A DNA stretch of 24,503 nt from a virus: positions 1-24,503 of IMG/VR virus record IMGVR_UViG_3300047546_001570; one strand, given 5' to 3'. Each line of letters starts with the position of its first letter. The first letter of the stretch is position 1. Under the pieces are notes generated by a model, which was not told the origin of the DNA, ran no database searches, and saw nothing but the letters and a program-made list of their open reading frames with translations. Both the position numbers and the translations under genes were made by a program. This document shows, in pieces, positions 3,333-24,400 of the stretch.

Positions 3333-4609
3333 TACTGACCCTTTCTCCTCAAATATTCGTCAAAAGTAAAATCGGCTTCATAGGGCTCGTATGCCGCTGT
3401 TTCGCGTGGTGACATATTTGGAGTATATGGGCTATATCCCGCTCGCCCCTGTACTTGCGGCATGGAGGTAGCCGAATAACTTGGTTGAATTGCCTGCCCT
3501 TGAGGTGCATTTTGACCAAAATACGACAACCCCTTTGAAAAACCTTCGGCCACGCCTTGAATAGCTTGATTACGGTCGCGTGTTTGTTGATTCATAGCTG
3601 TGTCGTATTTGTAGCCAACTCCAGCCCTTGCACCTGCATGATTCATCAAATTTTCGTAATTTTGCTGAGTAAGTTGTTCTTTTTTAGCTTGGATGGCTAG
3701 TCTATCGGCTCGTGCTTGGCGATCCATCGCATACTTTTGACCAAGGAGATCATTATAACGGTTGAGGTTATCAACGCTAAATTTGTTGCGCTGCGCGACA
3801 TTCGCATCGGCTATGCGTTGCTCTCGATCCAAGTTGTATACTTGCGCCTGATTCGCCATGTTGGCACGTTGATTCAAATAGTTTTGATAGTTGGCGCTAG
3901 TGCGTTGGTTGAAGTCGTTAATAATGCCAGTATTGCGGGCCGCTTCGCCCATCTCGCTTGTTCTAATGTTGCCGCCAAGAGATGCGCTGCGATCGAGGGC
4001 CATAAGTTGGTTTCGATATGCCTCAGCCGCTGCCGCTTGGCTTGCCAGAGCTCCCCTTGTCATCGCATCAGAACCGCCTTGTAGCTGCGCTGCCAGTTGA
4101 ACGCCGCTATCTAGCGCTCCCCTCCTTTGTGCGTCCTGCAATGCCGACGCTGTGCGCCCTTGGGCCTCAATCCTGGCCCTGTCGCTGGCTTCCTGCATCT
4201 TTTGCTGGAACATCGGATCGGAACGGCCTGCTGCAATATCACGGTAACGGCGCAGGGCCTCTAACTGTGCTCCCCGTCCTTCTTGGGCCGCCGCCGAGGC
4301 TTCAACTATCTGCGGAGCTACCTCGCGCACAAAGTCGGCGACTTCGGGAACGTATTGGCCTACCGACGCAAACGATTCTGGCGTAATTCGCGAGTAATCA
4401 AAAGCCGCTGGCGGGATTGTTTTAACTAGCTCGGGATCGTCGTAAATTGAAACATTATATTGAGGAGGGACAATCTCATTAAACATCCTTTCTATGTCTT
4501 GAAGGCGTTTCTTGGATGCCCCTCTTTCTCTCTCAGAATTGTATAATTGAATTAAACCGGAGGCCGCTCCAATAGCTGCCATGCCGATGCCTATAGTCAG
4601 TGGTTCCAT
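3332..4609 (-). CDS. Internal virion/ejection protein candidate, Ala/Gln/Asn-rich helical
   Basis: 425 residues. The ATG overlaps the previous stop as TAATG and has a near-perfect AAGGAGG site seven bases upstream. Residues about 4-22 form a Gly/Ala/Ile-rich hydrophobic helix that could cross a membrane. The middle (about 100-330) is rich in Ala, Gln, Asn and Arg with very few hydrophobic clusters, typical of the long helical internal proteins that short-tailed phages eject to form a channel for DNA. The C-terminus is Pro/Tyr-rich. No catalytic motif is visible. The role is inferred from composition and from its place in the block of large genes downstream of the portal; a minor tail or scaffold-like role is possible. 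Confidence 0.75.
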   Translation of the reverse strand: MEPLTIGIGMAAIGAASGLIQLYNSERERGASKKRLQDIERMFNEIVPPQYNVSIYDDPELVKTIPPAAFDYSRITPESFASVGQYVPEVADFVREVAPQIVEASAAAQEGRGAQLEALRRYRDIAAGRSDPMFQQKMQEASDRARIEAQGRTASALQDAQRRGALDSGVQLAAQLQGGSDAMTRGALASQAAAAEAYRNQLMALDRSASLGGNIRTSEMGEAARNTGIINDFNQRTSANYQNYLNQRANMANQAQVYNLDREQRIADANVAQRNKFSVDNLNRYNDLLGQKYAMDRQARADRLAIQAKKEQLTQQNYENLMNHAGARAGVGYKYDTAMNQQTRDRNQAIQGVAEGFSKGLSYFGQNAPQGQAIQPSYSATSMPQVQGRAGYSPYTPNMSPRETAAYEPYEADFTFDEYLRRKGQ

Positions 4610-7017: not shown

Positions 7018-7019
7018 TT

Positions 7020-9014
7020 TTATCGTCTCCCAAGCATGTCATCGGCTGGTTGTGCGACCTCTGGCGTCGGCAATGCCACGGCTTCACTTGTATCTGTACC
7101 GCCCTCCTCTGGCATAGGTTGCCCACCCTCAGGAGGAGGTGCGCCTTCCATACCGGGAGGTGGCATCATCCCGCCAGGAGGAGGCAAGGGAGGCATCTGG
7201 CCAGTCTGCACCATGGCCATAAGGACCGGATCTGTGTTTTTGGCAAGCTCCAAATGTTGCAGAATGTGATTCAAAATCAATTGCACACGAGCGCCATCGG
7301 CCCTGACGATTGGATCATTAAGCAACGTGCTGTGCATCATGATATGTTTCGGATGATTGTCGGTACTAAGTACAATCGTTTCCTTGCCGTCCATCATCGC
7401 GTCATTCTCGGCCTGGACTAGATCCGACTGGCTCGCCTGTGGCTGGAATAGCTTAGTCAGAGGTTCGCCGTCCAGGATGGACACGTACTCTTGAATATTT
7501 GTGACAAGCCCGCGCTCAATAGCTTTGTCAGCAATCTCAACACGCCCTGCCATAGTCTGCATTAGTGGGTTGATGTTTTGAATCTTCACACCAATGATCG
7601 GATCTAAGTCTTGAGCGTTAAATTTGCGACTGAATGACTGATAATTTTTACCAGTCATCCTTACAAGCCTCTCGGTAGTCGCAAACACGCGATATGCAGT
7701 AATGGCATGATACATGGTCCGTTCCAGACAGTTAATCATGCTTTTGGTGTAGCTGGACAAGAACTCCAAGGCGTTAGTCGTCAGGGTAGCGATGGCCTTA
7801 CCTGACGATGATTGCGGCACTTCACCCCGAACCGCTGCGTTAATGTTAGAAATTTGCTGCATATTGCTCAAAAGAGCCTCGGCAAACTTCAAACTATTAG
7901 GACTGTCTTGCAGAAGATTGAGAGGTTCGGGCTTACCGCCGCCAGGGATGTCCTGGGGAGTGTAAAATATGTAGTTCATGCCGCCCAAGGCTTCCACGTT
8001 GATATCAGCACCACGGGCCGCCGTCACATTTTGGACACCAAGAGCGCTATGGTTGGTCGCTACCGACGAAAACTCATGGTCATACATTTCTTGGGCCGGT
8101 AGCAGGTTCGAGAGCATGGGATAGCCGAAGTTAAGCCCTTTGATTGGCTCTGGCTTGTATTGCTCAATCGGGATGCAACCGTATTTATTCACGTCGTCGT
8201 AAAGGACGCAATTCTTGTCACCATAAATCATCATCCGGCCACGGGGGAGACTGGGAGTAGGCTTGTGATAGACCTCGTACACGTACACGGTGTCGTTATC
8301 ATCAAAGCCCATATAGGAGCGGGAACGTAACTCGGTCGAGACAGCTGGCAGTTTCATTAGCTGTTCGGCAAGTTCAGGATGTTGAGCGATTAGTGTCCAC
8401 CTATTACGGCGTACCCTGACTTGCACCCAATCCAGGTCCTCCCACCGAGGAATTTGGAAGTTGTAGAGCATGTCCATAATGTGAGGGATACTGATTTCAA
8501 TATCGCCCTCGTAAATGACACGCTCATTCTCGTCCACGGCGATGGCTTGGCCTACGTCGGTGCGCCACGTCGTTTTGATAAAGCCAGTACCTGTCACTAG
8601 GCCATCTTCGACAAATTGTTCCGCGAGTAGGTCTAGCTTGGTCTTTTCAACCGTTTCCTCACAAACAGCGTTGGCAATTCGGACGTTTTCCGTGACTTCA
8701 GCGCCGTCAGTCTTAGCAATCCCATGGAACGCAAGCTTTTGCTTGGTCACTAGCGTCACTAGCTGGCGGATTAGCGACCGCGCTTGAGGAACGCTCATTT
8801 TGACTAGTTCGCCTTGGTCGCCGACAAATTGAAGCGCCGTAAACCAGGATTGAGCGTCAAGAATCGTGGAATAGTAGGCGTAAGTGTTGCGCTGCCACAT
8901 TTGCCAAATTGGGTTGAATGATGCGCCGTAGAAACGCTGATTCATACCCATCAATTTCGCCGCTAATTCCTCGGCTTCCCAAGTCATGAAATAGTCGCGA
9001 GCGTTCAAACTCAT
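7020..9014 (-). CDS. Portal protein
   Basis: 664 residues from ATG 9014. The start overlaps the nozzle stop as ATGA with a purine-rich leader; the frame stays open 12 codons further upstream but nothing favours those. The portal is the dodecameric ring at one capsid vertex through which DNA is packed and ejected. Length fits podovirus/P22-type portals. The N-terminal third carries a phage-portal-like pattern (FNPIWQMWQRN, SVPQARSLIRQLVTLVTKQK). Around residue 310-385 lie PMLSNLLPAQEMYD, then NVTAARGADINVEALGG, then a glycine-rich turn. The segment SNINAAVRGEVPQSSSGKA (about 405-423) matches the conserved SG(K/R)A region of such portals. The C-terminal ~75 residues are Pro/Gly/Met-rich and likely disordered inside the head. 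Its place after the nozzle, far from the terminase, is unusual. Confidence 0.85.
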   Translation of the reverse strand: MSLNARDYFMTWEAEELAAKLMGMNQRFYGASFNPIWQMWQRNTYAYYSTILDAQSWFTALQFVGDQGELVKMSVPQARSLIRQLVTLVTKQKLAFHGIAKTDGAEVTENVRIANAVCEETVEKTKLDLLAEQFVEDGLVTGTGFIKTTWRTDVGQAIAVDENERVIYEGDIEISIPHIMDMLYNFQIPRWEDLDWVQVRVRRNRWTLIAQHPELAEQLMKLPAVSTELRSRSYMGFDDNDTVYVYEVYHKPTPSLPRGRMMIYGDKNCVLYDDVNKYGCIPIEQYKPEPIKGLNFGYPMLSNLLPAQEMYDHEFSSVATNHSALGVQNVTAARGADINVEALGGMNYIFYTPQDIPGGGKPEPLNLLQDSPNSLKFAEALLSNMQQISNINAAVRGEVPQSSSGKAIATLTTNALEFLSSYTKSMINCLERTMYHAITAYRVFATTERLVRMTGKNYQSFSRKFNAQDLDPIIGVKIQNINPLMQTMAGRVEIADKAIERGLVTNIQEYVSILDGEPLTKLFQPQASQSDLVQAENDAMMDGKETIVLSTDNHPKHIMMHSTLLNDPIVRADGARVQLILNHILQHLELAKNTDPVLMAMVQTGQMPPLPPPGGMMPPPGMEGAPPPEGGQPMPEEGGTDTSEAVALPTPEVAQPADDMLGRR

Positions 9015-12000
9015 TTGGATACTCTTTCTCTGTATGCGCGGATCGCCCAACTAATCGTTTGGATGTCCATGGATTCAGCCGCTTCTTGGTGATTCATTAT
9101 GGCTTGGATGAAAGTATTTCTCTGCTGAAATAATGGCACGTAAATACGAACAACTGGCGCAGGCTCGGTGATAACTTTTGCATCTAGTAGGTCTGCCTGT
9201 CCCCAGGGAAAGAATCCCCATGGTGCAAATCCCCAGCCGCCAGTAGTGCCAGTTACCCTAGTATCTAACCACTCGGCTTCTTCTGAACCGCCAAATGACT
9301 GGCCCTGGAAGGTCAGCTTGATTCGGCTAATGTTGTTGGTCCGAGTGTGTAACTGGATCTGAGCAAATTGTTTGCCCAGACCCACCGTACCACCATGAAA
9401 CGGAGCCATTACGACCGCGCTCTTAATGTTAGCATACAACTGGACAGTCAAGAGAGGCGTCAAATTTGGCACTTTGGCAAAAGTTACAAGAAACAAACCA
9501 CTACCAGCGTTTTCTACCGACCGGATCCGGTTGATAACGTCGTTGTAGACAATCACGTCGCCGACTTCAGGTGTTCGACCAACAATCTGTATGACTGCCT
9601 GTTTTGCGTTCAAATTGACCGAAAGAATTACACACGAATAGTTTTGGCCTGTGAACTCTAGGCGGTTGCCGTATTTGCGCTCCTTGAGTACCCGATTGCT
9701 CGACACGAGAAACATCTTGTTGCTAGGCCCTACTACGCCAGCCGTAAACAGATAGTCGCTCGATGTCCACGTATCGTTCAAACTATTGTAAATATACGTT
9801 ATGGATTTCGTACTTGAGTTGTAGCCTAAAGTAGAAATTCGGTAGGTACGATCTGATTCATACGATACAGCCGCCGTCTCTGCGTTTAGGTTCGCTTGGC
9901 CAAGGATTGGCTCGATAAAGTTTTCAATCCTACGGCTAAGAATCTCGACGCTAGAATCAGTCGCCGAACAAATCCCCTGAGTACCAAGAAAGTACACCTT
10001 GTTATTGAGGAGAGCACCGCTATTTTCGGCCAAGACAATGACGGTAGTATCGAGAGGCGTAACACTAAAATTAGCAATATTGTTGCCAGTAATTTTAAAT
10101 ATTCCATCTTCTTTCAGCAAAATCACGCTATCGCGTAGCGCAAATATCCTTTTAATCGCCTTGTTTTTAGATCCGACGAGCAAATAGTTTACCACGGGGA
10201 CAGCCTCGGGCTCGCTAACTTTGCTGATAAAAACGGCGTTTTTTTGAATGTTGTTTTTGCTGAAAACCTGATTACCGCTGGCAAACGATGTGGGCAAAAC
10301 TTGACTGAAGGCGTTGCAAATCCCAGCGCTACTGCCAGCCATGTATATGGTGCCAGTGAAATCCTCGGCGCTTATGCGAATTTTACCCGGAGTATCGTCG
10401 ATTGCTGAGACATAATTGCCGTATACTAGAGAAGGCAAATCCCTATTGATCGCTTTGATGAAACCTTGAGCGGTACGCCGTAATTGCGTCCCAACGCTCG
10501 CGCTTGTCTTGTCATACTGAAAAATAGGGTATGTGCCGTTCGTGACACCCTGAAAGAACAGATATGTGACAGCGCTGTATGGAACAGGAGTAGCGCCACT
10601 CAACAACTGAAAGGCATTAGCCGATAACCCAACGGAGTTTACCGTATACGTGCCGACTGCGAGAGATCCCCCGCTTACGAAGCTAACGAAAACCGTATCG
10701 CCAGCGAGGAAACCGTGAGCCGTGTAATTTATGCTCAAGTTACCAGTAGCATTGGTGACACTCTGAGACTGGACACTCTGATTAGCGACGCCGCTACGCG
10801 CAACATATCGCCTAATCGTCGCGTCCACTTTTATCTCGATATAGTCGTTATCGGCGATTCCCCCGGTATCGATTACGTCTATATTCAAAACGTGGCGAGC
10901 GATGCAATTAGCATAGAACACATAATTTTGAAACAAGGTGATGTCAGTACAATAAGGAGGTCTAAGATTCGCCTGAAGTTCTCCCTCTCGCGAGTTGGGG
11001 TTTGTATAGAGTTCCGTCGCGTTGGTGAGGAGAACACTATCGGTCTTATCTTCGTAAGAGAAAACTCGGTTAGCGAGGCTGACACTATCAAGCGTGATTT
11101 GTTCAACTAGTTTAAAGTCAGCGCTTGGGCTTGCCGTCTCGCTGTTACTTTCTGTGGTGCGATAGATTTGGATAAAGTAATTTTGTGAGACGAGATTGAT
11201 ATCGTCCGGTATGGATGCCTCAATTAGAGCCGTCCTAGACGCTTTCCATGAGAGAGTACCGCTCACGTTGTTACTGTCAACGCTGGCGATCTGGAATGTG
11301 GTAGGAGTGACGGCGCTAACAGTGTACGAGCCAAGAGCAACCGGATGATTTCCTAGACACTCAGTCACTGTGATTTGCATACCGTTGACAAGGTTATGCC
11401 CTGCACTGGTAACAGTCACTACGTTGCTGTTTCTCGTCCATGCAATCAAACTTCCATCGCTCTGGCGTGTCTGAATTGCATTGGTCAGAGGTACTATGTC
11501 GGATGGAGCTCCGAGGATTAAATTGCCGTTCACATCCTCACGCCCGAAACAGACACGATAAGCTATCTGACTGTCGCCAGGAATAGGCCCATTGAGAGGC
11601 AAAAACGAGCCACGGCAATCTAGGCCGCCAGCTGTACCAGCCTGGAAAACTGTACCGTTGTAGGCGTCAAGTTTGAGTACGCCAGTGTCACTGGTAAAGT
11701 ACAAGTTACCGTTTTGCTCGACTGATCGAGACACAAGCGGCGAGGTAATGCTAACAGGATGCCCAAGGAGCGCGGTAGCCGTTCCGATGGTGTTAGGCTC
11801 ACTACCCAAATCAGAAAAATACACGATCTTGTCATTAAAGACGCCCATCAATCGTGATTGGTAGGTAAAGAGGCTATTTAACGTGCTCGCACCGCTTGGA
11901 TAATATGAATAAAACCCGCGAATCTTTTGCAGGATGTTATCATCATTGATTACGACATTGCTGGCCTGTTCCATCGCGCCTTCGGGAAGCGCAAAGGTGT

Positions 12001-12055
12001 TAGGCTGTGCAAACAGGCCGCGAAACGCCTTAATCTCTGGGTATGAATATGTCAC
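9011..12055 (-). CDS. Tail nozzle protein (T7 gp12 / P22 gp10 type)
   Basis: 1014 residues from a GTG at 12055, preferred because it overlaps the adaptor stop (GTGA) and has GGAGG nine bases upstream; a TTG nine codons earlier is less likely. The protein probably forms the hexameric tube at the end of the short tail. The N-terminus, LPEGAMEQASNVVINDDN then RGFYSYYP, is the typical opening of podovirus nozzle/stabilisation proteins. Around residues 660-690 a stretch with NNKVYFLGTQGICSATD then EILSRRIENFIEPIL matches the family's central beta-propeller-like region. Two related beta-rich inserts lie at about 206-271 and 439-501, each with a (S/T)AGH/TAHG(H/F)L then GSYTV/GTYTV pattern. The C-terminus has a WGFAPWGFFPWG aromatic patch. 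Adjacent adaptor and portal genes agree with this role. Confidence 0.75.
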   Translation of the reverse strand: MTYSYPEIKAFRGLFAQPNTFALPEGAMEQASNVVINDDNILQKIRGFYSYYPSGASTLNSLFTYQSRLMGVFNDKIVYFSDLGSEPNTIGTATALLGHPVSITSPLVSRSVEQNGNLYFTSDTGVLKLDAYNGTVFQAGTAGGLDCRGSFLPLNGPIPGDSQIAYRVCFGREDVNGNLILGAPSDIVPLTNAIQTRQSDGSLIAWTRNSNVVTVTSAGHNLVNGMQITVTECLGNHPVALGSYTVSAVTPTTFQIASVDSNNVSGTLSWKASRTALIEASIPDDINLVSQNYFIQIYRTTESNSETASPSADFKLVEQITLDSVSLANRVFSYEDKTDSVLLTNATELYTNPNSREGELQANLRPPYCTDITLFQNYVFYANCIARHVLNIDVIDTGGIADNDYIEIKVDATIRRYVARSGVANQSVQSQSVTNATGNLSINYTAHGFLAGDTVFVSFVSGGSLAVGTYTVNSVGLSANAFQLLSGATPVPYSAVTYLFFQGVTNGTYPIFQYDKTSASVGTQLRRTAQGFIKAINRDLPSLVYGNYVSAIDDTPGKIRISAEDFTGTIYMAGSSAGICNAFSQVLPTSFASGNQVFSKNNIQKNAVFISKVSEPEAVPVVNYLLVGSKNKAIKRIFALRDSVILLKEDGIFKITGNNIANFSVTPLDTTVIVLAENSGALLNNKVYFLGTQGICSATDSSVEILSRRIENFIEPILGQANLNAETAAVSYESDRTYRISTLGYNSSTKSITYIYNSLNDTWTSSDYLFTAGVVGPSNKMFLVSSNRVLKERKYGNRLEFTGQNYSCVILSVNLNAKQAVIQIVGRTPEVGDVIVYNDVINRIRSVENAGSGLFLVTFAKVPNLTPLLTVQLYANIKSAVVMAPFHGGTVGLGKQFAQIQLHTRTNNISRIKLTFQGQSFGGSEEAEWLDTRVTGTTGGWGFAPWGFFPWGQADLLDAKVITEPAPVVRIYVPLFQQRNTFIQAIMNHQEAAESMDIQTISWAIRAYRERVSK

Positions 12056-12990
12056 CAGTAATACCCTCCGCGAACGCGCCAATAATTGTAGCCTCGTCCA
12101 CGTAGTAAGCCGTTGCGGTTGATAATCTTCGTTTGCTCGCCCTCTATTCGAGGCTGAATTATCTTGAGCAAATTTCGTTCTTGGGCCACGGCGTCCTTTT
12201 GCATCGCCTGGGAGCCTTCATAGTCGCCAATCGCGTACAGCACCCGATCTGCGACACAAGTTTCGAGAAGTTGTTGGGCCTCGTCCGGTAGCTGCATCAC
12301 TGGCGCTTCTTGAGCTAGTGCTATGTAGTCACCAGCCGCTAAGTCTGTGGGCACCGCGCCAGTCGCAAACACTAGCTGGGTAGAACCAGCGCTACCGATG
12401 GCCACGTCATAGGCCAAAGTCGAGCAACCCGCCTTGCCTTGGATGAAATCGATAAGCGTACCAGACAAAAACGTGTCCGGCTTGCCGTCGATATTCACCA
12501 CGTCGCCGCTTACGCTCGTCACCTTTGCCGCTTTGTCCATCGTCACCATTTTATTGGGCTGAAGATTGAAAAACTGGCGTAAAAGGTAGACATCGGCGTT
12601 CGGCTCTGGACAGAGCATAATCGAATCACCAGAGAAGTAGAAACCTGTAGGCAAAGTCTGGTTGATGAATAGGTGCTCATCCTCAAGCGCGATAAGTCGC
12701 ATATCAATCTGGCGAATATTGTCCTGGCTGTACTTGAGTTTCAAGTCCCGCAACGCTCTACCAATCGCCCGGTAATGGATTGGATACTTGCGCTGTCCCT
12801 GATACACAGGAATATCGACGTAGGTTACAAAATAGTTCTGATTGGTGCTCAAAAAGAGCGGAACCATTCTATCCCTGATTACGTCAGTCGCCAGATCAAG
12901 GAAATTTTGGTCGGTCATGAGAGGTTGATTTGCCGGGATAGTTATCCGACGTTTCAACCCCTCTAAGAATCGGTCGGACGTTACTGTCAT
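12052..12990 (-). CDS. Head-tail adaptor protein candidate
   Basis: 312 residues. The ATG overlaps the previous stop (ATGA), with AAGG nine bases upstream. The likely role is the ring joining portal to tail nozzle. Residues about 28-55 hold DQNFLDLATDVIRDRMVPLF, an N-terminal helical segment, followed by a beta region with VDIPVYQGQRKYPI and RAIGRALRDL, resembling adaptor/connector proteins of podoviruses. Residues about 118-150 (FSGDSIMLCPEP then LRQFFNLQPNKM) fit the same family. A beta-rich insert spans about 152-235, and a helical segment about 237-275. The C-terminus is aromatic and basic. It directly precedes and is coupled to the nozzle gene, as adaptors commonly do. It could instead be another head-completion protein. 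Confidence 0.65.
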   Translation of the reverse strand: MTVTSDRFLEGLKRRITIPANQPLMTDQNFLDLATDVIRDRMVPLFLSTNQNYFVTYVDIPVYQGQRKYPIHYRAIGRALRDLKLKYSQDNIRQIDMRLIALEDEHLFINQTLPTGFYFSGDSIMLCPEPNADVYLLRQFFNLQPNKMVTMDKAAKVTSVSGDVVNIDGKPDTFLSGTLIDFIQGKAGCSTLAYDVAIGSAGSTQLVFATGAVPTDLAAGDYIALAQEAPVMQLPDEAQQLLETCVADRVLYAIGDYEGSQAMQKDAVAQERNLLKIIQPRIEGEQTKIINRNGLLRGRGYNYWRVRGGYYW

Positions 12991-13387: not shown

Positions 13388-13837
13388 TCACTTCGGTTGA
13401 ATACGAAAAACAACTACCCATTTATCGCCAACGTGGGATGTACCAATCGCGGCAATTTTTGGATCAAGAAGGATTTTCCTGCCCATAAAGTCGCGCATCC
13501 ATCGAAAAACCGCCGTCTCTGGGAGCTCAAAACCACATCCAACTAGCTCGGCGCTTGCCTCTGTCCCGCAATCCCTAGCTCTCTGCTCAAATGTAGAGCC
13601 ATCTGAACCCGCATGATTGCATGACCGAGACTTTACCAAGTCTTTTGCATGTCGATCTGCTGCACAGGCTAACTCCCTCGTCGATACAACCAACGGCAAG
13701 TCATTCTGCGCCCTAATTTCGTTAATCTCGACTTGTAAATCATCCATGCCAGGGTAAGGCGTAGGAATTGGATCGGCAGGAGGAGCCGGAACCCATTGCG
13801 CGAAGGCGGTTGAGGCTAAGAGAAGTTTGTACAACAT
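13388..13837 (-). CDS. Secreted CAP-domain (SCP/PR-1-like) protein
   Basis: 149 residues. The ATG follows GAGG formed partly by the preceding gene's stop (TTGAGG). Residues 1-13 look like a short signal peptide (Lys4, hydrophobic LLLASTAFA, cleavage after AFA), followed by a Pro-rich spacer to about 29. The rest fits a bacterial CAP domain: EINEIRAQNDLPLV (38-50), LACAADRHAKDL (57-67), CNHAGSDGSTFEQRA (73-87), with H75 at the usual first histidine, a Glu in the SAEL stretch near 97, WMRDFMGRKILLDP (113-126) and WVVVF (140-144). The usual second histidine (before R in HRxxLL) appears to be Gly119. Four Cys (58, 73, 90, 101) may form disulphides outside the cytoplasm. CAP proteins have varied, often unknown roles; here it may aid adsorption or envelope interaction. 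Confidence 0.8.
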   Translation of the reverse strand: MLYKLLLASTAFAQWVPAPPADPIPTPYPGMDDLQVEINEIRAQNDLPLVVSTRELACAADRHAKDLVKSRSCNHAGSDGSTFEQRARDCGTEASAELVGCGFELPETAVFRWMRDFMGRKILLDPKIAAIGTSHVGDKWVVVFRIQPK

Positions 13838-13844: not shown

Positions 13845-14441
13845 TCAAGCGATACGAACAGCTCTTAACACGCCACAGTATTGTGGTGTCCCTGCACTCC
13901 AAGATCCCGTGTATGCGCGCAAAGCCATCGACGTTGTGGCATAACTCACACCTGTTCCAGTAGCGTAAATGATTATATTTGTTCCCGTACAAATTACCCT
14001 AATGGATGCTGTCGTAATACGAATGTCGCTGAAGGTTGTTGGTGGGTATTGCATAGCCAAACCACCCTCTACTACCGTACTATTCGTCTGCCCGTTTGCG
14101 ACTACCCCAATGACATATTCTGGGTTAGTAACAGTCGCCCCATTTCTTGTAATTCTAGCCATGCCGCTAACTTCATAAACGCCAGCTGTTAATACTAGAG
14201 TTGTAATGTTTGATTCTAAACCAGTGGCGTGAGTCACGTTAATCAAACTATTTACGTTAGATTGCAACACTTCACCGACATATCCGGCTGGAACTACTAC
14301 CCCGCTCGTATCTCCTTTAATCAACGCCCCTCCGTCGAGCGTCTTTTTCCCAGCAAAAGTCTGCGCCCCCGTTCCTACTAAACCAGGGCTTGTGGTTGTG
14401 GCTAATCCCGACGTGTTGAATGAAATCGCGCTATTTGGCAT
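13845..14441 (-). CDS. Short tail fibre/tip protein candidate sharing C-terminal module with long fibre
   Basis: 198 residues, ATG with AGAGGAC upstream, 12 bases after the previous stop. The first ~40 residues are Gly/Thr/Ser-rich with GTGAQTFAGKKTLDGGA, a repeat-like element seen in phage fibre shafts. From residue 45 a TSGVVVPAGYVGEVL opening leads into a beta-rich domain of about 150 residues that ends in RAVRIA. The long fibre ends with a domain that begins TSGVVIPSGYVGEQL and ends VATRIA, so the two appear homologous although the middles differ. A trimeric receptor-binding tip is the most natural reading. Location in the fibre cluster supports this; direct receptor identity cannot be read from the sequence. 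Confidence 0.7.
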   Translation of the reverse strand: MPNSAISFNTSGLATTTSPGLVGTGAQTFAGKKTLDGGALIKGDTSGVVVPAGYVGEVLQSNVNSLINVTHATGLESNITTLVLTAGVYEVSGMARITRNGATVTNPEYVIGVVANGQTNSTVVEGGLAMQYPPTTFSDIRITTASIRVICTGTNIIIYATGTGVSYATTSMALRAYTGSWSAGTPQYCGVLRAVRIA

Positions 14442-14453
14442 GGGTTTGTCCTC

Positions 14454-15515
14454 TTAGAGTTCGGCGGAAAAAGTGATACCGGAGTTTGCTGTATTGGAAT
14501 ATAGAACCATACCTCCACCAACATAACCGCCGGAAAAACTTATATACAAAGATGCTTGAGTTGGAGACGTTCTGTTCTGTTGAATGGCGGTATTTAAAGA
14601 TAAGTCAGATGCACTATTAGCACCATTTGCACCAAACACTTTGAAAGTTCCAACCAAAGCAGCCGCAGGAGCTATTCTCATCCTCACTGGAAATTGACCT
14701 AAAAACACCGTCCCAACTGTTGCGCTATCAATACAGCCACTACCAAAAATATTAGTAGAGTTTTGCGAAGCATCGTATGACATGACATGATAATAACGCT
14801 GGCACAAAGCAAACTCTGTTCCAATCGGCCTTTGCTCAAACGGCGTTGCTTGTGGTCCGGCTTCGAGTTGGACGTTGGCAATGTCGAAGGTGCCGGATTG
14901 CTCTCCTAATGAATCAGTTGAGGCATTAGAACCACTTCCTGCACTCAACCAAATTCTTAACCTTAGATAATCATCTCCGTTGGTACCTAACGTTTTCCCT
15001 GAAATACTCGGCAAAGTTACGGTTGCAGAATATCTTGCCCATGAAGATGTTATGGCAATTTTATTTATGCCTAGATTTTGAACGATTGCAGAAGGCGAAC
15101 CACCAGTGCCAAAAAATTGGGAAAACTCTATTGAAACAGATCTTGATGTGTCAGCTTTTGCCCAAAAAGAAATGGTACAAGTTTGACCAGATAATGTGGC
15201 TACACCTTCAATAAGTTGTTGCTTAATAACAAAGTTTGAAGCGTTAGCAACGCCAGCGGTTACAACCGTTCTAGAAAAATATTTTGGGTTTCCAGGAACG
15301 TCGGTTTGTCCAACCGTAAATGTTTGCTGGCTTGCTGTCTTAGTAGAGTTTCCGCCGTGTACGTTACTCCATCTATCATCACTGCCATACCCACTAGAAG
15401 TTTGGCTAGTACCCCTCTGCCAAATATCAAACCCGCCGTTAATCAGCTTATTCCTAAACATCAAGCCGCTGCCTGATATATCTCCATACGAACCTAGAAA
15501 GGGGACCGTTGGCAT
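14454..15515 (-). CDS. Tail fibre/virion protein with carbohydrate-binding-like jelly roll
   Basis: 353 residues, ATG with AAGGAG six bases upstream. The N-terminus has FRNKLINGGFDIWQRGTS then SSGYGSDDRWSN, a combination I recognise from many phage structural proteins, followed by a beta-rich segment to about residue 215 with CTISFWAKAD and SARYSATVTLP-like strands, as in CBM4/9-like jelly rolls. The segment QLEAGPQATPFEQRPIGTEF then ALCQRYYHVM (about 217-247) is another widespread phage signature. The C-terminal ~100 residues are Gly/Ser/Asn-rich beta. It probably binds a surface sugar as part of the fibre or baseplate-like tip. The gene looks more AT-rich than the long fibre gene next to it. 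Function is inferred from motif and location. Confidence 0.75.
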   Translation of the reverse strand: MPTVPFLGSYGDISGSGLMFRNKLINGGFDIWQRGTSQTSSGYGSDDRWSNVHGGNSTKTASQQTFTVGQTDVPGNPKYFSRTVVTAGVANASNFVIKQQLIEGVATLSGQTCTISFWAKADTSRSVSIEFSQFFGTGGSPSAIVQNLGINKIAITSSWARYSATVTLPSISGKTLGTNGDDYLRLRIWLSAGSGSNASTDSLGEQSGTFDIANVQLEAGPQATPFEQRPIGTEFALCQRYYHVMSYDASQNSTNIFGSGCIDSATVGTVFLGQFPVRMRIAPAAALVGTFKVFGANGANSASDLSLNTAIQQNRTSPTQASLYISFSGGYVGGGMVLYSNTANSGITFSAEL

Positions 15516-15530: not shown

Positions 15531-18005
15531 TTAAGCGATTCGTGTAGCAACAATCTTGCCTCTGGCTGCTGCTGTACCAGAGGATAAGGTAATAGCTTGC
15601 CTTAGGGTTACGGACTTGGTTCCGTCTGTAGCTAAAACCAGACCGGGAATACTGCTGGCAGACCCTCCCCTAATTGCCGCGCCTTGTGTGACAAAAGCAA
15701 CAACGCCCGAATTATCCCCGTTCGTTGCAATAGTTGGCGTAAATGTACTATCGTTATATTTTGCGTTTGCCATAAATATAGCGCCAGCATTTACCCCGGC
15801 TGCTTCGATATTCCAAACATAAAAATCAACTCGCCACAAACCTGCACTTGTTATTGGTAATGTCGCAAGCGTAAGGGTTACACCCCCAGTTGTGCTTGTG
15901 GTAAGTTCAGAGCCCGTAACACTTAATTGTTCTCCAACATAACCGCTAGGTATCACAACTCCACTTGTTCGGCCCTGGATTTGGACACCGTTTCCGCTTG
16001 TGTTGGCATTGATGGTGTCAACCGTCGGCGTCCCACCAATCACGCTGCTACCGCTAACAGATAGCGGAAAGTTTGTCCCCACCGCCGGAGCGTTAAGCGC
16101 ATAGTTAATGCTTGCCGAAGTGAACACACCGGGAATGTTTGGCATGGTGATTTGAATGACACCGGCGTTGGTGATCGACATTAGAAATCCGGCTGGAGGC
16201 GTGTCGCCACTCACCTGATACGAAATGTCATAGATATTGTCACCGCCTCGTACGAATTGGGCTTGGACATAGAAACGGAGATCTGTCGTCGCGTCAATGT
16301 ATACCCAACCAGCAAGCCCGCCAGCGTCATAGGAGGATACGTCCTGGACGGTCTGGTTTGGTGTGTTGTTGAGAAGAGAGATTTGCGTCCTAGCATTGGC
16401 GCCGCCGACGACAACACCGCGCTTGGGAGCGACATAAAAGGTAGTCGTGCTAGAAGCCACACCAACCGGGACAGATACATATCCGATAGTGCTAGGCTCA
16501 GTCAGCGAGTAGGTTCCAGCAACACTATCGCTCAAGAAATAGACAGAGCCAGCCGTCAATCCGGTCAAACCCGAGATTTCGCCGCTAAGTGTCAACTCAA
16601 AGTTGTTCGCGTCAACCACACGCGATACGACGCCGACGACTTCCGCAGCTGCCGCAGAGGTTGCAATCGCTTTGGTGTATGTAGCGCCGTTCAAATAAAG
16701 CACGTTGCCGACAACAAAACCGTGTGACGCCTGATTGATCTTATCAACCGATCCGCCTCCGCCAATCCCCGACCATGCCCCGGCTGCGTACCCTTCAAAT
16801 GCCGTCAAATCGGAGTTGTACCGAATCATTCCGTTGACTGGCGTTCCTGGTCGTTCCGCCGTAGTGCCAGAAGCAACTTTGAACGAACCAGTGCCGTTCT
16901 GTGTTGCATTACCCGCAATCGTCAGCGTGTCGCTGGTCGCATCACCTAGGACAGTGTTGCCGTTGACAGTTAGATCAGTGCTGACTTTTGCTGCGCCTAC
17001 TACGTCAAGAGCTACGGTTGGGGCTGCGATACCGACGCCCACTCGGTTGTTGGCTGCGTCGATGACAAGCGTGTTGCTATCAAAGTTAAGGCCGTTGGGC
17101 AGTGTGACAGCTGTACCGTTAATAGTCAGCACGTCCGAGGAGGCATCGCCAAGGGCCGTGTTGCCGGAAGCGTTCAAGGCTCCAGCGTTGACCGTTGCCG
17201 CTGCCACAGTCGTGGCATTGACGGTGCCCACGACGTCCAGGGCTTGGCTTGGAGAGGCCGTACCGATACCCACTCGGTTAAGAGTTGCGTCAATAACGAG
17301 GGTATTGGAGTCGAAATTGAGGCCATTGGGGATACTTGCCGCGCTACTATTGATCGTCAGTGCGTCGGCTGCCTGATCGCCAAGAGTGACACCGCCGTTG
17401 AGAGCCGCTGTACCTGCCACGCTCAAAGCGCCGCTACCTGTCAGCGTCACGCTGCCAGAGCTATTCAGCGAAGTAGAACCAGCGATAGTGCCGCTAGTGA
17501 TGGCGCTACCAGATACCTTGCCAGCCGTTGAGATGACCCCAGAGATATCGGAATCAGTCACCTGTCCTGGGGGAATAGCGTAGTTAATTACTTTCCAATC
17601 GCTGTCGCCGCTGTTGTATTGCAGCATGACAACTTGGCGGTTTTTATTCAGCACGAGCGAGGTTTGACCGATGATAGTGTCAGACCCCGAACGATTGATT
17701 GTGATGTTGTTCGTCGCGGCATCAGCTTTGCCATCGACGATTACAAAAATCTGGCCGGGAGATCCTCCGGGCAAGTTGACAGTGACAGGACCAGCTACCG
17801 TCAAGTCAGTCACGATTGCGTAATCAGATGCAGCCGAGACAGTGACTGGGCTTGTTGTGGCCTTCCTAATCTCTTGCTTCATTTCGCCAGCAACGGCGGC
17901 TTTGTTTCCCAACGCAACCAGGAAGTTGGTCAAGCTTGACCAGTTGAACTCCCCAGATTGCGGGATACTGTATGTAGTTCCGTCCCAGGTTACGTTAATA
18001 GCCAT
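15531..18005 (-). CDS. Long tail fibre protein
   Basis: 824 residues, ATG with AAGGAA upstream; it begins 26 bases after the capsid terminator's T run. The N-terminal ~150 residues include PGQIFVIVDGKADAATNN and TIIGQTSLVLNKNRQVV, a virion-attachment type start. Low-complexity Ser/Thr/Gly shaft follows. Two imperfect ~52-residue repeats, at 209-260 and 286-337, contain IPNGLNFDSNTLVIDA and RVGIGTASP-type units, with a third partial unit at 354. A further module at about 420-530 (QASHGFVVGNVLYLNG, EVVGVVSRVVDANNFEL, LTAGSVYFLS) is common in phage fibres. The last 145 residues form the module shared with the 198-residue protein. No S74 chaperone end is visible. It most likely recognises the host surface. 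Confidence 0.75.
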   Translation of the reverse strand: MAINVTWDGTTYSIPQSGEFNWSSLTNFLVALGNKAAVAGEMKQEIRKATTSPVTVSAASDYAIVTDLTVAGPVTVNLPGGSPGQIFVIVDGKADAATNNITINRSGSDTIIGQTSLVLNKNRQVVMLQYNSGDSDWKVINYAIPPGQVTDSDISGVISTAGKVSGSAITSGTIAGSTSLNSSGSVTLTGSGALSVAGTAALNGGVTLGDQAADALTINSSAASIPNGLNFDSNTLVIDATLNRVGIGTASPSQALDVVGTVNATTVAAATVNAGALNASGNTALGDASSDVLTINGTAVTLPNGLNFDSNTLVIDAANNRVGVGIAAPTVALDVVGAAKVSTDLTVNGNTVLGDATSDTLTIAGNATQNGTGSFKVASGTTAERPGTPVNGMIRYNSDLTAFEGYAAGAWSGIGGGGSVDKINQASHGFVVGNVLYLNGATYTKAIATSAAAAEVVGVVSRVVDANNFELTLSGEISGLTGLTAGSVYFLSDSVAGTYSLTEPSTIGYVSVPVGVASSTTTFYVAPKRGVVVGGANARTQISLLNNTPNQTVQDVSSYDAGGLAGWVYIDATTDLRFYVQAQFVRGGDNIYDISYQVSGDTPPAGFLMSITNAGVIQITMPNIPGVFTSASINYALNAPAVGTNFPLSVSGSSVIGGTPTVDTINANTSGNGVQIQGRTSGVVIPSGYVGEQLSVTGSELTTSTTGGVTLTLATLPITSAGLWRVDFYVWNIEAAGVNAGAIFMANAKYNDSTFTPTIATNGDNSGVVAFVTQGAAIRGGSASSIPGLVLATDGTKSVTLRQAITLSSGTAAARGKIVATRIA
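16995..17150 (-). repeat. Fibre shaft repeat, unit B
   Basis: Encodes residues about 286-337: GD.SSDVLTI, LPNGLNFDSNTLVIDA, RVGVGIAAPTVALDVVG. It matches unit A in order and spacing. A third, shortened copy (GDATSDTLTI) begins at residue 354 (about base 16946) but lacks the following NGLNFDSN part. Confidence 0.75.
17226..17381 (-). repeat. Fibre shaft repeat, unit A
   Basis: Encodes residues about 209-260 of the long fibre: GD..ADALTI, then IPNGLNFDSNTLVIDA, then RVGIGTASPSQALDVVG. It aligns over its length with unit B 231 bases downstream, roughly 70% at DNA level by eye. This is a protein-level shaft duplication, not a mobile repeat. Confidence 0.75.
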
Positions 18006-18024
18006 GAATTAAATTCCTTTTAAG

Positions 18025-18058
18025 AAAAAAGGGCCAGCCCCAACGCATGGGGCCAGCC
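18025..18058 (-). terminator. Strong intrinsic terminator after major capsid gene
   Basis: Read on the minus strand, GGCTGGCCCC, A, loop TGCGT, T, GGGGCTGGCC gives an 11-pair stem (two G-U wobbles) followed by CTTTTTTCTT. It lies 17 bases after the capsid stop and 20 bases before the long-fibre start, so downstream tail genes would be reached only by readthrough or by a promoter I cannot see. Confidence 0.85.
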
Positions 18059-18074
18059 GCAATCAGAAGGTCAA

Positions 18075-19418
18075 TTAGGATGCGGATTCGTCATTGATAC
18101 CAGTGATGAGCAAGTTTTGATTGGGCTCTGGAGTGAAAACGTACTCGTCAGCGTAGGATTTGAATTGGTAGCCAGCTTGGTTTTCCAAGGGACGAATGAG
18201 ATCGCCGTTGTCATCCATGCCGGGCACTTTAAAGCCTACTTGAGCAGAACCGGAACGCTTCCACGTGTCGGTGCGGAGAGCGAAGGCATAACCTTCTTTC
18301 ATGCAGCGATGAGCCTTAATGGTGAGCTTGCCGGTCTGAGTGTAATACTCAATGTCACGGAAACCGTTTTGCGCTTGGCTAGGCGAATAGGACTTATCAT
18401 ACACGCGAAGACCAGCTTCGGTGTTGGACAAGGTGGACCAGCTACGTGGGTTGACGTACACGTTCACGTCGCCTTCCAGACCACCACCGTTGACTGCATC
18501 GGCCAGGGCTTCTTGTAGGCGGGAAAGCGTGAGCTTAACGCCAGTAGAAGCACCGTTGCTGATATCAGCCACGTTACCTTTGAATAGAGGGAATTGCGCG
18601 GTATTGACGCCGAACAACGTCCCGCTGTTGGCAAGGATTGCGTGAATGCCGACCATTTCGCCAGCGCCTTCTTGACCGTCGAAGCAAAGACGGACAGAGC
18701 CAGAGCCAGAAACGGCAGAAGGAGCGACAGGCACAAAGTCCACGGTGATGTAACCGTATTTGCTTTGGTAGCCAGTCAGCTTACCGGAAGCAAGGATGTT
18801 GCCGTTTTGGTCAACTTGCTTGACTTTCACGCCGATCATACCAACCCAGAAGCCAGCTGCAAATTCGCCTGGAGCCAACAAAATTGCTTTAGAAGCAGCG
18901 TTGACGCCGTTTACAAAAGCTAAACCGTTTAGCGTTCCAGATCCGTTTGTAAACGAAGCTCCGCGATAGGTGCCAGAGTAGTATGAAACGTACCCAAGAA
19001 GGCTAGGAGACTGGCCCCACATTCTGAAGATTTCTAGGAATTTGTTGTGTGATTTTAGGTTGTTACGCGTGATGAACTTCGTGGCTCTAAAGAAAGCTTG
19101 TTCATCCCCTAGTGAACGAGAAATTGTTGCGAATGGGAGGATGGAGGGGAGGATGGACACGTACGGAGTAACCAAGGTTTGCTTTACAGCCCCCGCAATA
19201 GCCGGGTTTATTTCGAAAGCTTCCTGTCCACTTCCTCCTAGCGTGATCCCTGTCTCGGCACTAAGCACAACATCTTCAACGAACTGTGCGCCCACTCGTG
19301 CGCCTTCGGCCCAACCAATGTCCATTCCCAAAAGCTGATCTTCCGGGACGAGGTCGTACATATCACCGTATACGTTTTTGAATAGCTCAATGACCTGATT
19401 GTTCGAAACGGAAGCCAT
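18075..19418 (-). CDS. Major capsid protein
   Basis: 447 residues from ATG 19418, chosen over an in-frame GTG three codons earlier because AGAGGTG lies eight bases before the ATG. It is assigned as the shell-forming protein from its length, its place after a scaffold-like gene and before a strong terminator, and its pattern: N-terminal helix region, QTLVTPYVSILPSILPFATI (about 80-100), a SHNKFLEIF then SYYSGTYRGASF stretch (about 122-155), and a C-terminal part with DIEYYTQTGKLTIKAHRCM, then MKEGYAFALRTDTW and DDNGDLIRP. A Gly/Ser-rich beta insert at about 160-250 could be an added surface domain. I cannot show the HK97 fold directly. No protease gene is seen next to it. Confidence 0.75.
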   Translation of the reverse strand: MASVSNNQVIELFKNVYGDMYDLVPEDQLLGMDIGWAEGARVGAQFVEDVVLSAETGITLGGSGQEAFEINPAIAGAVKQTLVTPYVSILPSILPFATISRSLGDEQAFFRATKFITRNNLKSHNKFLEIFRMWGQSPSLLGYVSYYSGTYRGASFTNGSGTLNGLAFVNGVNAASKAILLAPGEFAAGFWVGMIGVKVKQVDQNGNILASGKLTGYQSKYGYITVDFVPVAPSAVSGSGSVRLCFDGQEGAGEMVGIHAILANSGTLFGVNTAQFPLFKGNVADISNGASTGVKLTLSRLQEALADAVNGGGLEGDVNVYVNPRSWSTLSNTEAGLRVYDKSYSPSQAQNGFRDIEYYTQTGKLTIKAHRCMKEGYAFALRTDTWKRSGSAQVGFKVPGMDDNGDLIRPLENQAGYQFKSYADEYVFTPEPNQNLLITGINDESAS

Positions 19419-19445
19419 ATGATTCACCTCTCAGTGTTTTAATGA

Positions 19446-19934
19446 TTACTTTGCGATCCAGCAGAAACGCACTTCGATCATGCCGCTAGTAAGAGCGTCC
19501 AGACCAGCCAGGACGAAACGACCAGCCAAGTTACCAGCTGCGCCTAGTGCGCCTTCGCAAGCCAGAGTAGAAGCGGTCAAGCCTTCGGCAACGTCAGCAC
19601 ACTCGGCGACGGTTGCACCGTTCGAGCCGCTGTACAGCTTCGCAGACACGCTTAGGAGCTTTTTGGCTTGGCCGTTCATGTTGACGATGACTGCAAGGGC
19701 ATCGGTGCCCATAGCAGTTGCGTCAAATGCAGCAACGGCAAACTCAGAAGACGTCCCGAGGAACGAATCAATCACGCTTTGGGAAGCGATTGCATCGTAC
19801 GACTTCAACAGCGCAGTATTCGCGACGATGGGGCTCGAAGCCTTTGCGCCGGTAATCTTGAATTGTAGTACAAGCTCATTAGGTACCACTTTTCCAAGTT
19901 GGTCGTTGTAATAAAACAAGCTAGAGACTGCCAT
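19446..19934 (-). CDS. Small virion protein, head decoration candidate
   Basis: 162 residues, ATG with a GGAG nine bases upstream that is embedded in the end of the scaffold gene. I do not recognise a family with certainty. The protein is Ala/Ser/Thr/Val-rich, strongly beta- and small-residue-biased, with FKITGAKASSPIVANTALL near residue 25-45, ALAVIVNMNGQAKKLLSVSAKLYSG at about 79-103 and a closing GMIEVRFCWIAK. Lying between scaffold and major capsid, inside the bracketed capsid transcription unit, it is probably a high-copy capsid component such as a decoration or cementing protein. A minor head role is the main alternative. Confidence 0.6.
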   Translation of the reverse strand: MAVSSLFYYNDQLGKVVPNELVLQFKITGAKASSPIVANTALLKSYDAIASQSVIDSFLGTSSEFAVAAFDATAMGTDALAVIVNMNGQAKKLLSVSAKLYSGSNGATVAECADVAEGLTASTLACEGALGAAGNLAGRFVLAGLDALTSGMIEVRFCWIAK

Positions 19935-19939
19935 GATCT

Positions 19940-20797
19940 TTATCTCCGTTTAAATCGTTTTTCCATTTCTTGAAATTTCTTTTCAATCGTCATTGGTTCG
20001 TCAGCCTTGCCGACTTCTTTCGCGCTCGGTTTGTTTTTCATGACGGTTTTGCTATCCAAAACTCTATCAACTTTAGCTTTCATAAGCGAGTCGATTAGAG
20101 ACTTGGGCAAAATCGACATGGCTTCCTCTGGCGAAAGATCGCTTAGGTATGCGCCAATGTCCTCGGTCATGCTCCTTTGAGCGTATTGCAAAGCTTGCTT
20201 CGCGGGGATTCGTTCTCCCTTGGCTTTAATGCTCGCTTCAATCTGCTCAATGATACGAAGGGCTAGCCTTGGATTGGCTTTCTTCCCGGCTTCTGCCAAT
20301 GCTTCCGAGATTTCAGCGTCCAATTCGGCCACGGCTCTTTGCGCCAATTCTTCTTGACGCGCCTTCTTTGAGCCCTCTTCCAACTCTTGCATCTTACGTT
20401 CAAGCTCTTCCCGCCTTTTCCGCTCGGACAAAAGTTCTTTGCGCTCTTGTGGTAACTCCTCGTACTCATACTGCTCGATCAGGTAGTTCTCAAACATCTG
20501 TCGCGCTTTTTGAGGTCCGAGCTTGTCCACCAAATAGTTAATGTCCCCTTTCTCTAGGGCTTGATTAACTCTTTGCGCTTCGGTCGAGAGCTTGGCCGCT
20601 TCTTGATAACGGCGTGTGCTCTCTTTGGCGTTTTGATAGTCGCGGATTAGCTCGTCATACGAGACTTCGCGTACCTCGCCGCCAAACTTAACTTTGTGCT
20701 TTGCGTTGCGCCAAGGCTCGGCCTCTTGTTTGGCCTGAGTTGCTTGCGCTTCGGTCGGTTGTGCAGGAGCTTGGACTCCTGCGCTTGCGGTTTCCAT
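19940..20797 (-). CDS. Capsid scaffolding protein candidate
   Basis: 285 residues, ATG with AGGAGA four bases upstream. The protein is highly charged and almost wholly helical, with a Gln/Ala-rich start, a KFGGEVREVSYDELIRDY segment (about 38-55), a coiled-coil stretch at about 115-160 rich in Glu, Arg and Lys, and a basic C-terminal KKFQEMEKRFKRR. A basic C-terminal helix is how P22-type scaffolds bind the coat protein. Position just before the capsid gene fits. The N-terminal GGxxxxVxxxEL pattern is also common in phage scaffold/head assembly genes. No protease motif is visible. A strong promoter lies in front of it. Confidence 0.75.
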   Translation of the reverse strand: METASAGVQAPAQPTEAQATQAKQEAEPWRNAKHKVKFGGEVREVSYDELIRDYQNAKESTRRYQEAAKLSTEAQRVNQALEKGDINYLVDKLGPQKARQMFENYLIEQYEYEELPQERKELLSERKRREELERKMQELEEGSKKARQEELAQRAVAELDAEISEALAEAGKKANPRLALRIIEQIEASIKAKGERIPAKQALQYAQRSMTEDIGAYLSDLSPEEAMSILPKSLIDSLMKAKVDRVLDSKTVMKNKPSAKEVGKADEPMTIEKKFQEMEKRFKRR

Positions 20798-20839
20798 TCT
20801 ATCTCCTGTGGTAGTCTTTCGACGCCGATTTTAATCCGC

Positions 20840-20868
20840 ATTATCACATGCTTAATATAATAACACAA
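20840..20868 (-). promoter_or_regulatory. Sigma70-like extended -10 promoter for the capsid unit
   Basis: On the minus strand: -35 TTGTGT (20868-20863), 17-base spacer, TGT then GATAAT (-10 at 20845-20840), so an extended -10. Transcription would start near 20833, about 36 bases before the scaffold ATG. The -35 lies inside the end of the upstream gene. Match is by eye. Confidence 0.55.
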
Positions 20869-21247
20869 GATCTAGGGGGGCTAGATCATCGGTCGGGGCA
20901 CTTGTCCCATCTGGGTTACAGAGCCTTGCTACAATCGTTAAACGATTATTCCTGTCGTAATACCATCCAAATGATTGCAAGAGATACAGTGAGCTTTGCA
21001 CCCTCACCGGAATGATGCCTGTCACCGTCTTGCTGGCGGTGATGACTTGAGCCGTTCCGCTCTTGACGTTGACGGTCTTCACTTCACTCGCAAAGTTGTC
21101 CCCAAACGTCAAACCGCTCCTAAGATTCCTTACAGTCTGCTCGATGAATTGGGCAAGGTACTCAAAAAACTCGGGGATCTCTTTGCCGGTGTTGGTCTTG
21201 CTTATGCGAGTCGTGTCGAGAAGTCGCGTGATTGTAAACTTTGCCAT
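20852..21247 (-). CDS. Conserved-looking phage protein of unknown function
   Basis: 131 residues from ATG 21247, which overlaps the terminase stop as TGATG; GGAG lies seven bases upstream. An in-frame GTG one codon earlier is less likely. The first ~50 residues are probably helical, with FFEYLAQFIEQTVRNLRSGL then TFGDNF at about 27-52. The rest is beta-rich: VKTVNVKSGTAQVI, GIIPVRVQSS, SFGWYYDRNNRLTIVARL. I have seen this helix-then-beta pattern in small phage structural proteins near the terminase but cannot name a function. The low-charge, sheet-rich end suggests a virion part rather than a regulator. Confidence 0.7.
   Translation of the reverse strand: MAKFTITRLLDTTRISKTNTGKEIPEFFEYLAQFIEQTVRNLRSGLTFGDNFASEVKTVNVKSGTAQVITASKTVTGIIPVRVQSSLYLLQSFGWYYDRNNRLTIVARLCNPDGTSAPTDDLAPLDLVLLY
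20933..20947. repeat. Perfect dyad near capsid promoter
   Basis: AATCGTT, A, AACGATT is a perfect 7-base inverted repeat with a one-base centre. It lies inside the 131-residue gene, about 64 bases upstream of the capsid-promoter -35. It shares 15 of 17 bases with the dyad near 24163-24179. Coincidence is possible. Confidence 0.35.
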
Positions 21248-23419: not shown

Positions 23420-23449
23420 TTGGGTAGTCTCCTTTGATTGATGTTTTAA

Positions 23450-23480: not shown

Positions 23481-23500
23481 TCATTTTACAAGGTAACAGT

Positions 23501-24397: not shown

Positions 24398-24400
24398 CAG

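What the first reader, a model, noticed from the sequence alone, without database searches (positions are those of the whole stretch)
13388..13837. CAP-domain protein with signal peptide in a phage structural operon, lacking the second His
CAP (SCP/PR-1) proteins are common in cells but unusual inside a phage virion operon. This one has a signal peptide, a Pro-rich spacer, four Cys and the H75 motif, but Gly119 at the usual second histidine. It sits between fibre genes and the head-tail genes, so it may act in the host periplasm or on the virion. The altered site argues for a binding role rather than a metal-dependent one.
Basis: partly seen in the sequence, partly recalled or inferred. Interest (0 to 1): 0.6.

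Follow-up and report, generated by a model that had tools for sequence, protein, structure and literature searches.

The report
Exported CAP-fold protein in phage operon
This phage carries, between its tail-fibre and head-tail genes, a small gene for a probably exported CAP-fold protein that has lost one of the two metal-holding histidines, and its closest sister phages carry a second CAP gene with both, next to their lysis enzyme; this suggests, but does not show, that the phage acts on the host cell envelope through CAP proteins.

Summary
The ORF at 13388-13837(-) is a CAP-domain protein (Pfam PF00188 36.2 bits, cut-off 21.1; AlphaFold model matches solved CAP folds at Z up to 18). It has a short export signal, a Pro-rich linker, four Cys, H75, E97 and Gly119 where the second cavity His belongs. 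The loss is real: orthologues in two sister phages have Gly and Ser there, while 51 of 57 CAP domains compared have His, and every other domain that keeps the first His keeps the second. Purifying selection (pN/pS 0.20) argues against decay. New here: (1) sister genomes carry a second, canonical CAP gene between tRNA-Asn and an endolysin; it has a separate origin. (2) An unrelated phage has a four-Cys CAP lipoprotein, both His intact, between its fibre and lysis genes. (3) The nearest named profile is DalA, a divisome-associated CAP lipoprotein, but the protein fails that family's cut-off. (4) None of 20 more distant terminase relatives has a CAP. Best reading: a Sec-exported, disulphide-stabilised late protein that binds envelope partners in the host periplasm, not a virion part. 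Function is inferred only. Phage CAPs and His-less CAPs were already known: new variant of a known kind.

The parts
13388..13837 (-). CAP-domain protein gene, 149 aa plus stop
   Evidence: PF00188 36.2 bits, E=1.2e-8; orthologues 78% and 53% identical at the same place in two other phages; pN/pS 0.20 to G001
13799..13837 (-). putative short Sec signal peptide, residues 1-13 (MLYKLLLASTAFA), no lipobox Cys
   Evidence: sequence reading; orthologues have longer signals ending before Q; N-terminal hydrophobicity among the highest of the proteins compared; no predictor available
13748..13798 (-). Pro-rich spacer, residues 14-30 (QWVPAPPADPIPTPYPG); PTPYPG is invariant in three phages
   Evidence: alignment
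13391..13747 (-). CAP fold, residues 31-149
   Evidence: model with local pLDDT about 90; Z 18.1 to 4ifa, 15.8 to BB0689
13613..13615 (-). H75, first cavity His, invariant in the three phage orthologues
13547..13549 (-). E97, equivalent of the Glu of the CAP 'GEN' motif
   Evidence: 57 of 57 domains have Glu here
13490..13492 (-). D116 (W113+3), acidic and invariant in the three phage orthologues
13481..13483 (-). G119, in place of the second cavity His; Gly or Ser in the orthologues
   Evidence: 51 of 57 domains have His here; ungapped alignment
13664..13666 (-). C58; with C73 (13619-13621), C90 (13568-13570) and C101 (13535-13537) the four conserved Cys
   Evidence: all four invariant in three orthologues and present in the CAP lipoprotein of an unrelated phage (L155)
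13845..14441 (-). upstream gene, 198 aa, unknown; no match in sister phage G001
   Evidence: tblastn
14454..15515 (-). tail-fibre gene (phrog_4492); 100% identical in G002, no match in G001
15531..18005 (-). large repetitive fibre-like gene, 824 aa
12987..13370 (-). downstream gene, 127 aa, unknown; in G006 a similar short gene directly follows the fibre-like gene with no CAP between
12052..12990 (-). conserved head-tail gene, 312 aa (adaptor/tail-tube role inferred)
   Evidence: conserved in G001, G002, G006 and the Silvanigrella phage
7020..9050 (-). portal protein (P22-like)
   Evidence: phrog_156; PF16510
21247..22653 (-). terminase large subunit, used to find relatives
   Evidence: phrog_2

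Best explanation
The gene encodes a CAP-fold protein that the host Sec pathway exports late in infection, with the virion proteins. In the periplasm it is stabilised by up to two disulphides and acts by binding, not by metal-dependent chemistry, because the two-His metal site is broken while the rest of the cleft (H75, E97, plus D116) is kept. The likeliest target is the host envelope machinery around peptidoglycan, in the manner of DalA, a CAP lipoprotein that binds divisome subunits and affects peptidoglycan cross-linking. It would work beside the phage's second, canonical CAP protein, encoded next to the endolysin in sister phages, to weaken or reorganise the envelope before lysis or to hold host division. 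Shown here: CAP identity and predicted fold, the lost His, purifying selection, conserved Cys, gene context, and the second CAP in sister phages. Inferred: export, periplasmic site, late timing, target and effect.
For: PF00188 hit and CAP fold. Export-like N-terminus and four Cys conserved in three orthologues. Tight co-directional operon with structural genes. G119/G/S in the orthologues, while every other CAP domain compared that keeps the first His keeps the second. pN/pS 0.20. A second CAP with signal, His, Glu and His intact in G001 and G002, between tRNA-Asn and a phrog_465 endolysin in G001. In an unrelated phage (L155) a CAP with the same four Cys, a lipobox (ITSC) and both His lies between a fibre-like gene and a phrog_894 endolysin. 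NCBIfam DalA is the best named profile for the virion-operon CAP (47.6 bits). DalA is an outer-membrane lipoprotein that binds divisome subunits, and its loss lowers mDAP-mDAP cross-links (PMC10470522); RSP1200, the same gene, has a CAP domain (PMC5442454). A CAP cleft without cavity His still binds ligand in HpVAL-4 (PMC5893428).
Against: No expression, localisation or activity data. The signal peptide is very short and no predictor was run. The protein is far below the DalA cut-off (47.6 against 200 bits) and lacks a lipobox. It is encoded with structural genes rather than lysis genes. The DalA match may reflect only the shared HTGSDGS-type CAP subfamily.
Confidence: 0.4

Rival explanations
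1. Superinfection exclusion: the exported CAP protein blocks or alters the receptor or DNA-entry path so that the infected cell is not infected again.
For: [quoted passage not shown] A CAP domain in a mobile element already has an exclusion role: enterococcal PrgA, whose solved CAP domain (6z9k/6z9l) matches the model at Z 9.8-10.6, gives surface exclusion (PMC10588982).
Against: The CAP does not track the fibres: window and G002 share a 100% identical p14454 and a 90% identical p15531 but only 53% CAP identity, whereas G001 has no match to p14454 or p13845 yet its CAP is 78% identical. No lipobox. PrgA is thought to act by proteolysis, and this cavity lacks one of the conserved His.
Confidence: 0.2
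2. It binds a lipid or lipid-like envelope molecule in the CAP cleft, with no enzymatic role, for example to handle host lipids during assembly or release.
For: A CAP protein lacking the cavity His binds sterol and has lipid cavities (PMC5893428); the Rhodobacter mutant in the CAP gene RSP1200 secretes lipid (PMC5442454).
Against: Most bacterial hosts lack sterols (general knowledge); no lipid-binding motif was tested; the clefts of the bacterial relatives are not characterised here.
Confidence: 0.15
3. It is a virion component (fibre-base or head-tail accessory), as the first reader also allowed.
For: Encoded inside the structural operon between fibres and the head-tail genes.
Against: Export-like N-terminus and four conserved Cys suit the periplasm, not cytoplasmic virion assembly (general knowledge). 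All 20 more distant terminase relatives checked lack a CAP match, and in G006 the flanking genes are directly adjacent without it.
Confidence: 0.12
4. It is a captured host gene that is decaying or has no function in this position.
For: Patchy distribution; a conserved cavity residue is lost; faster protein change than its neighbours (pN/pS 0.20 against 0.08-0.14).
Against: Intact and syntenic in three phages whose synonymous sites are near saturation, with pN/pS well below 1 and H75, E97, D116 and all four Cys kept.
Confidence: 0.06

Closest known systems
DalA (RSP_1200), divisome-associated CAP lipoprotein of Rhodobacterales (NCBIfam NF052539)
   Same: Best named profile for all three virion-operon CAPs (39-48 bits); CAP domain; envelope protein
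   Different: Far below the 200-bit equivalog cut-off; no lipobox in the phage protein; DalA's cavity residues were not examined here
CAP lipoprotein of an unrelated phage, IMGVR_UViG_3300021958_000442 (L155)
   Same: 36% identity, same four Cys, Pro-rich spacer, HTGSDGS motif, downstream of a fibre-like gene
   Different: Lipobox present, second His intact, endolysin next to it on the other strand
YkwD-type CAP proteins (TIGR02909, PHROG 16914), including the LysM-CAP protein of Bacillus phage Stills
   Same: CAP domain, secreted, phage-encoded; role unknown (PMC4541274)
   Different: The virion-operon CAP matches weakly (E 0.039 to TIGR02909; E 0.0018 to phrog_16914); no LysM; the sister phages' second CAP matches this type much better
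HpVAL-4 (parasitic nematode CAP protein)
   Same: CAP fold without the metal-binding cavity His pair; still binds sterol (PMC5893428)
   Different: Eukaryotic; lacks both His, whereas the phage protein keeps the first
PrgA of Enterococcus pCF10
   Same: CAP domain carried by a mobile element, with an exclusion role (PMC10588982)
   Different: Cell-wall-anchored Gram-positive protein on a long stalk, thought to be a protease; Z 9.8-10.6 only

Membership tests
CAP superfamily (PF00188) | profile score above the curated cut-off | tested here: met
   36.2 bits against 21.1; orthologues 28.1 and 29.9
CAP superfamily (PF00188) | alpha-beta-alpha CAP fold | tested here: met
   Z 18.1 to 4ifa, 15.8 to BB0689, 13.1 to GAPR-1, on a predicted model with pLDDT 82.8
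CAP superfamily (PF00188) | cavity His-Glu-His set (typical, not required: HpVAL-4 lacks the His) | tested here: not met
   H75 and E97 present, second His replaced by Gly. Superfamily membership rests on profile and fold, since accepted members lack this set
CAP superfamily (PF00188) | secreted | tested here: inconclusive
   short hydrophobic N-terminus with AFA|Q, better in the orthologues; no signal predictor available
DalA (NF052539) | equivalog score of 200 bits | tested here: not met
   47.6 bits
DalA (NF052539) | lipoprotein with a lipobox Cys | tested here: not met
   no Cys before residue 58
DalA (NF052539) | binds divisome subunits | not testable with these tools
   needs pull-down or two-hybrid tests
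YkwD family (TIGR02909) | subfamily score of 171 bits | tested here: not met
   13.9 bits
Llp/Cor-type superinfection exclusion lipoproteins | small lipoprotein encoded beside the receptor-binding protein | tested here: not met
   no lipobox; in addition CAP divergence does not track the fibres

The most novel reading that the evidence does not exclude
The phage uses a two-protein CAP system: a canonical, metal-capable CAP beside the endolysin and a CAP without the metal site, made with the virion proteins, that binds the host divisome or peptidoglycan machinery like a DalA decoy, halting division or priming the wall for lysis. This would be a new class of phage envelope effector.
Probability: 0.18. 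Interest if true: 0.65.

Novelty: new variant of a known kind. Interest (0 to 1): 0.42.

Why it matters
What bacterial and phage CAP proteins do is an open question. A phage lineage that encodes two of them of separate origin, one with and one without the metal-binding His pair, gives a natural pair for asking whether the CAP cleft works by metal chemistry or by binding, and whether phages use CAP proteins to act on host cell-wall and division machinery.

Tried and rejected
Recent duplication inside the phage: rejected. The two phage CAPs are about 20-24% identical, and the virion-operon CAP falls in a supported 17-row clade of mostly HTGSDGS-type bacterial CAPs (98/92) that excludes the second CAP, though on a long branch. 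Chance match or misaligned site: rejected by fold, orthologues and the ungapped alignment. The first structure job, with 3 sequences, gave pLDDT 54.7 and was replaced. tblastn in 50,697 phage records found only three weak, unannotated human-gut matches, and none for the second CAP. The genome scan with the second CAP found no relative; with a CAP alignment it found only Chloroflexota MAGs, so the host is not identified. The nearest named phage by terminase infects Silvanigrella aquatica (31% identity) and has no CAP match. The CAP domain census draws mostly on Chloroflexota and a few plasmids and holds some near-identical rows, so its percentages are not population frequencies.

Full report
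WHAT WAS CHECKED. The window is a 24,503-base IMG/VR virus fragment. The reported gene is an ORF at 13388-13837 on the minus strand, 149 aa, starting at an ATG with GAGG five bases upstream and seven bases after the preceding gene's stop. Pfam PF00188 (CAP) matches residues 38-139 with 36.2 bits against a cut-off of 21.1. Orthologues lie at the same place in two other viral contigs, G001 (IMGVR_UViG_3300024352_000065, 78% identity) and G002 (IMGVR_UViG_3300043395_002142, 53%).

FOLD. VIA-align gives Z 18.1 (1.6 A, 117 residues) to the SCP domain of 4ifa, 15.8 to BB0689, 14.9 to SAV1118 and 13.1 to GAPR-1; the leading 42 entries, down to Z 7.8, are nearly all named CAP/SCP/PR-1 proteins, and then Z drops to 3.3. 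Foldseek agrees.

THE ALTERED SITE. In an HMM-guided alignment of 57 CAP domains, Glu at E97 is present in all, His at H75 in 51, and His at position 119 in 51. The exceptions at 119 are the three phage orthologues (G, G, S), two near-identical Chloroflexota domains that also lack the first His, and one domain of a gut phage that also lacks it. So among domains keeping the first His, only these phage proteins lack the second. The alignment to the CAP of another phage (L155, 36% identity) has no gap between W113 and the stretch after G119 and sets G119 against its His. H63 does not substitute, since L155 has it along with both cavity His; H135 is not conserved. D116 is invariant in the three orthologues and sits three residues after W113, where GAPR-1 has its second cavity Glu (that placement rests on my own knowledge of GAPR-1). 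The published meaning of the site: both His are needed for Zn-dependent effects in GAPR-1 (PMC6900432), both matter for Pry3 function (PMC7340583), yet HpVAL-4, with neither, still binds sterol (PMC5893428).

SELECTION. pN/pS between window and G001 is 0.20 for the CAP, against 0.08 for the portal, 0.10 for the 312-aa gene and 0.14 for the 127-aa gene. The gene is constrained but changes faster than its neighbours.

A SECOND CAP. A family search of the sister contigs found two CAP genes in G001 and G002 and one in the partial G004. The second, with 55-57 bits, lies on the other strand, after a tRNA-Asn and, in G001, before an endolysin-like gene (phrog_465, E=4.4e-30); it has a clear signal, SHDG, GEN and GPHR/AGHR, that is, His, Glu and His intact. 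The ends of G001 overlap by 145 bases at 98.6% identity, so G001 is close to a whole circular or permuted genome and holds both genes. The window stops before this region. G002 positions 1-7432 are 100% identical to window 17072-24503, so the window's phage probably has the second gene too, but G002 looks like a mixture of strains, so this is not shown. A tree places the two phage CAPs apart: the virion-operon type inside a supported clade of bacterial CAPs that are mostly of the HTGSDGS type, the second type outside it. They are not a recent duplication.

DISTRIBUTION. Twenty contigs with more distant terminases (28-54% identity) have no CAP match. In G006 (54% terminase identity) a short gene resembling the 127-aa gene directly follows the fibre-like gene, with no CAP between. 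The gene was therefore probably gained in the window's lineage. Some of these contigs are fragments.

AN INDEPENDENT CASE. Phage contig IMGVR_UViG_3300021958_000442 (L155) has a CAP lipoprotein (lipobox ITSC, Pro-rich spacer, the same four Cys, both His) after a fibre-like gene, followed by a short ORF with one hydrophobic stretch, then an endolysin (phrog_894) on the other strand. So a CAP of this subfamily occurs between fibre and lysis genes in a second lineage.

NEAREST NAMED FAMILY. NCBIfam's best match is DalA (47.6, 48.3 and 39.0 bits for the three orthologues; 57.3 for L155), below the 200-bit cut-off, so these are not DalA. DalA is an outer-membrane lipoprotein that binds divisome subunits; its loss lowers mDAP-mDAP cross-links (PMC10470522). 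The same gene, RSP1200, was described as a CAP-domain protein whose mutant secretes lipid (PMC5442454). This gives the best available lead for the target: the host's wall and division machinery.

EXPORT. The N-terminus MLYKLLLASTAFA|QW is a short but plausible signal; orthologues read MKMMLAKLFLASIANA|Q and MKIIFPLIFSSSLAFG|Q (which start codon is used is not known). Its hydrophobic stretch ranks high among the proteins compared. Four Cys conserved in all three fit an oxidising compartment. Tailed-phage virions assemble in the cytoplasm, so an exported protein is unlikely to be a virion part; this step is general knowledge plus inference.

RIVALS. Superinfection exclusion has good precedents in location (T5 Llp, PMC9586334) and in domain (PrgA, PMC10588982). 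Against it, CAP divergence does not follow the fibres: window and G002 share a 100% identical fibre gene but a 53% identical CAP, while G001 lacks that fibre gene and has a 78% identical CAP. Lipid binding, virion part and decay are weighed in the Rival explanations section.

VERDICT. The most likely reading is an exported CAP protein that acts by binding in the host envelope; its target is a guess guided by DalA. CAP genes in phages (PMC4541274) and His-less CAPs were known, so it is a new variant of a known kind. The pair of unlike CAPs in one phage is the most interesting part.

Noticed in passing
G001 about 10600-11077(+) and 11243-11626(+); L012, L016: Second, canonical CAP gene between tRNA-Asn and an endolysin-like gene, in a strand run that goes on to RecT.
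   Followed up: yes
G002 (IMGVR_UViG_3300043395_002142) 1-7432 and 34508-41726: Both ends of the contig carry divergent copies of the capsid-terminase region; the left end is 100% identical to window 17072-24503. Probably a mixed-strain assembly of a permuted genome.
   Followed up: partly
window 13845-15515: Two fibre-region genes are present in the window, and one of them whole in G002, but have no match in G001, so the fibre module is exchanged while the CAP gene stays.
   Followed up: partly
L155:7349-8410(+): An unrelated phage encodes a subtilisin-like protease with a signal-like N-terminus near its CAP lipoprotein and endolysin.
   Followed up: no
L028 (CP017838.1): A phage record from Silvanigrella aquatica is a distant relative by terminase, portal and capsid (31-43% identity), a weak hint at the host group.
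   Followed up: partly
G026, G027 (L123, L124): A Chloroflexota CAP-like family has lost both cavity His (Thr and Glu instead), another altered-site CAP group.
   Followed up: no
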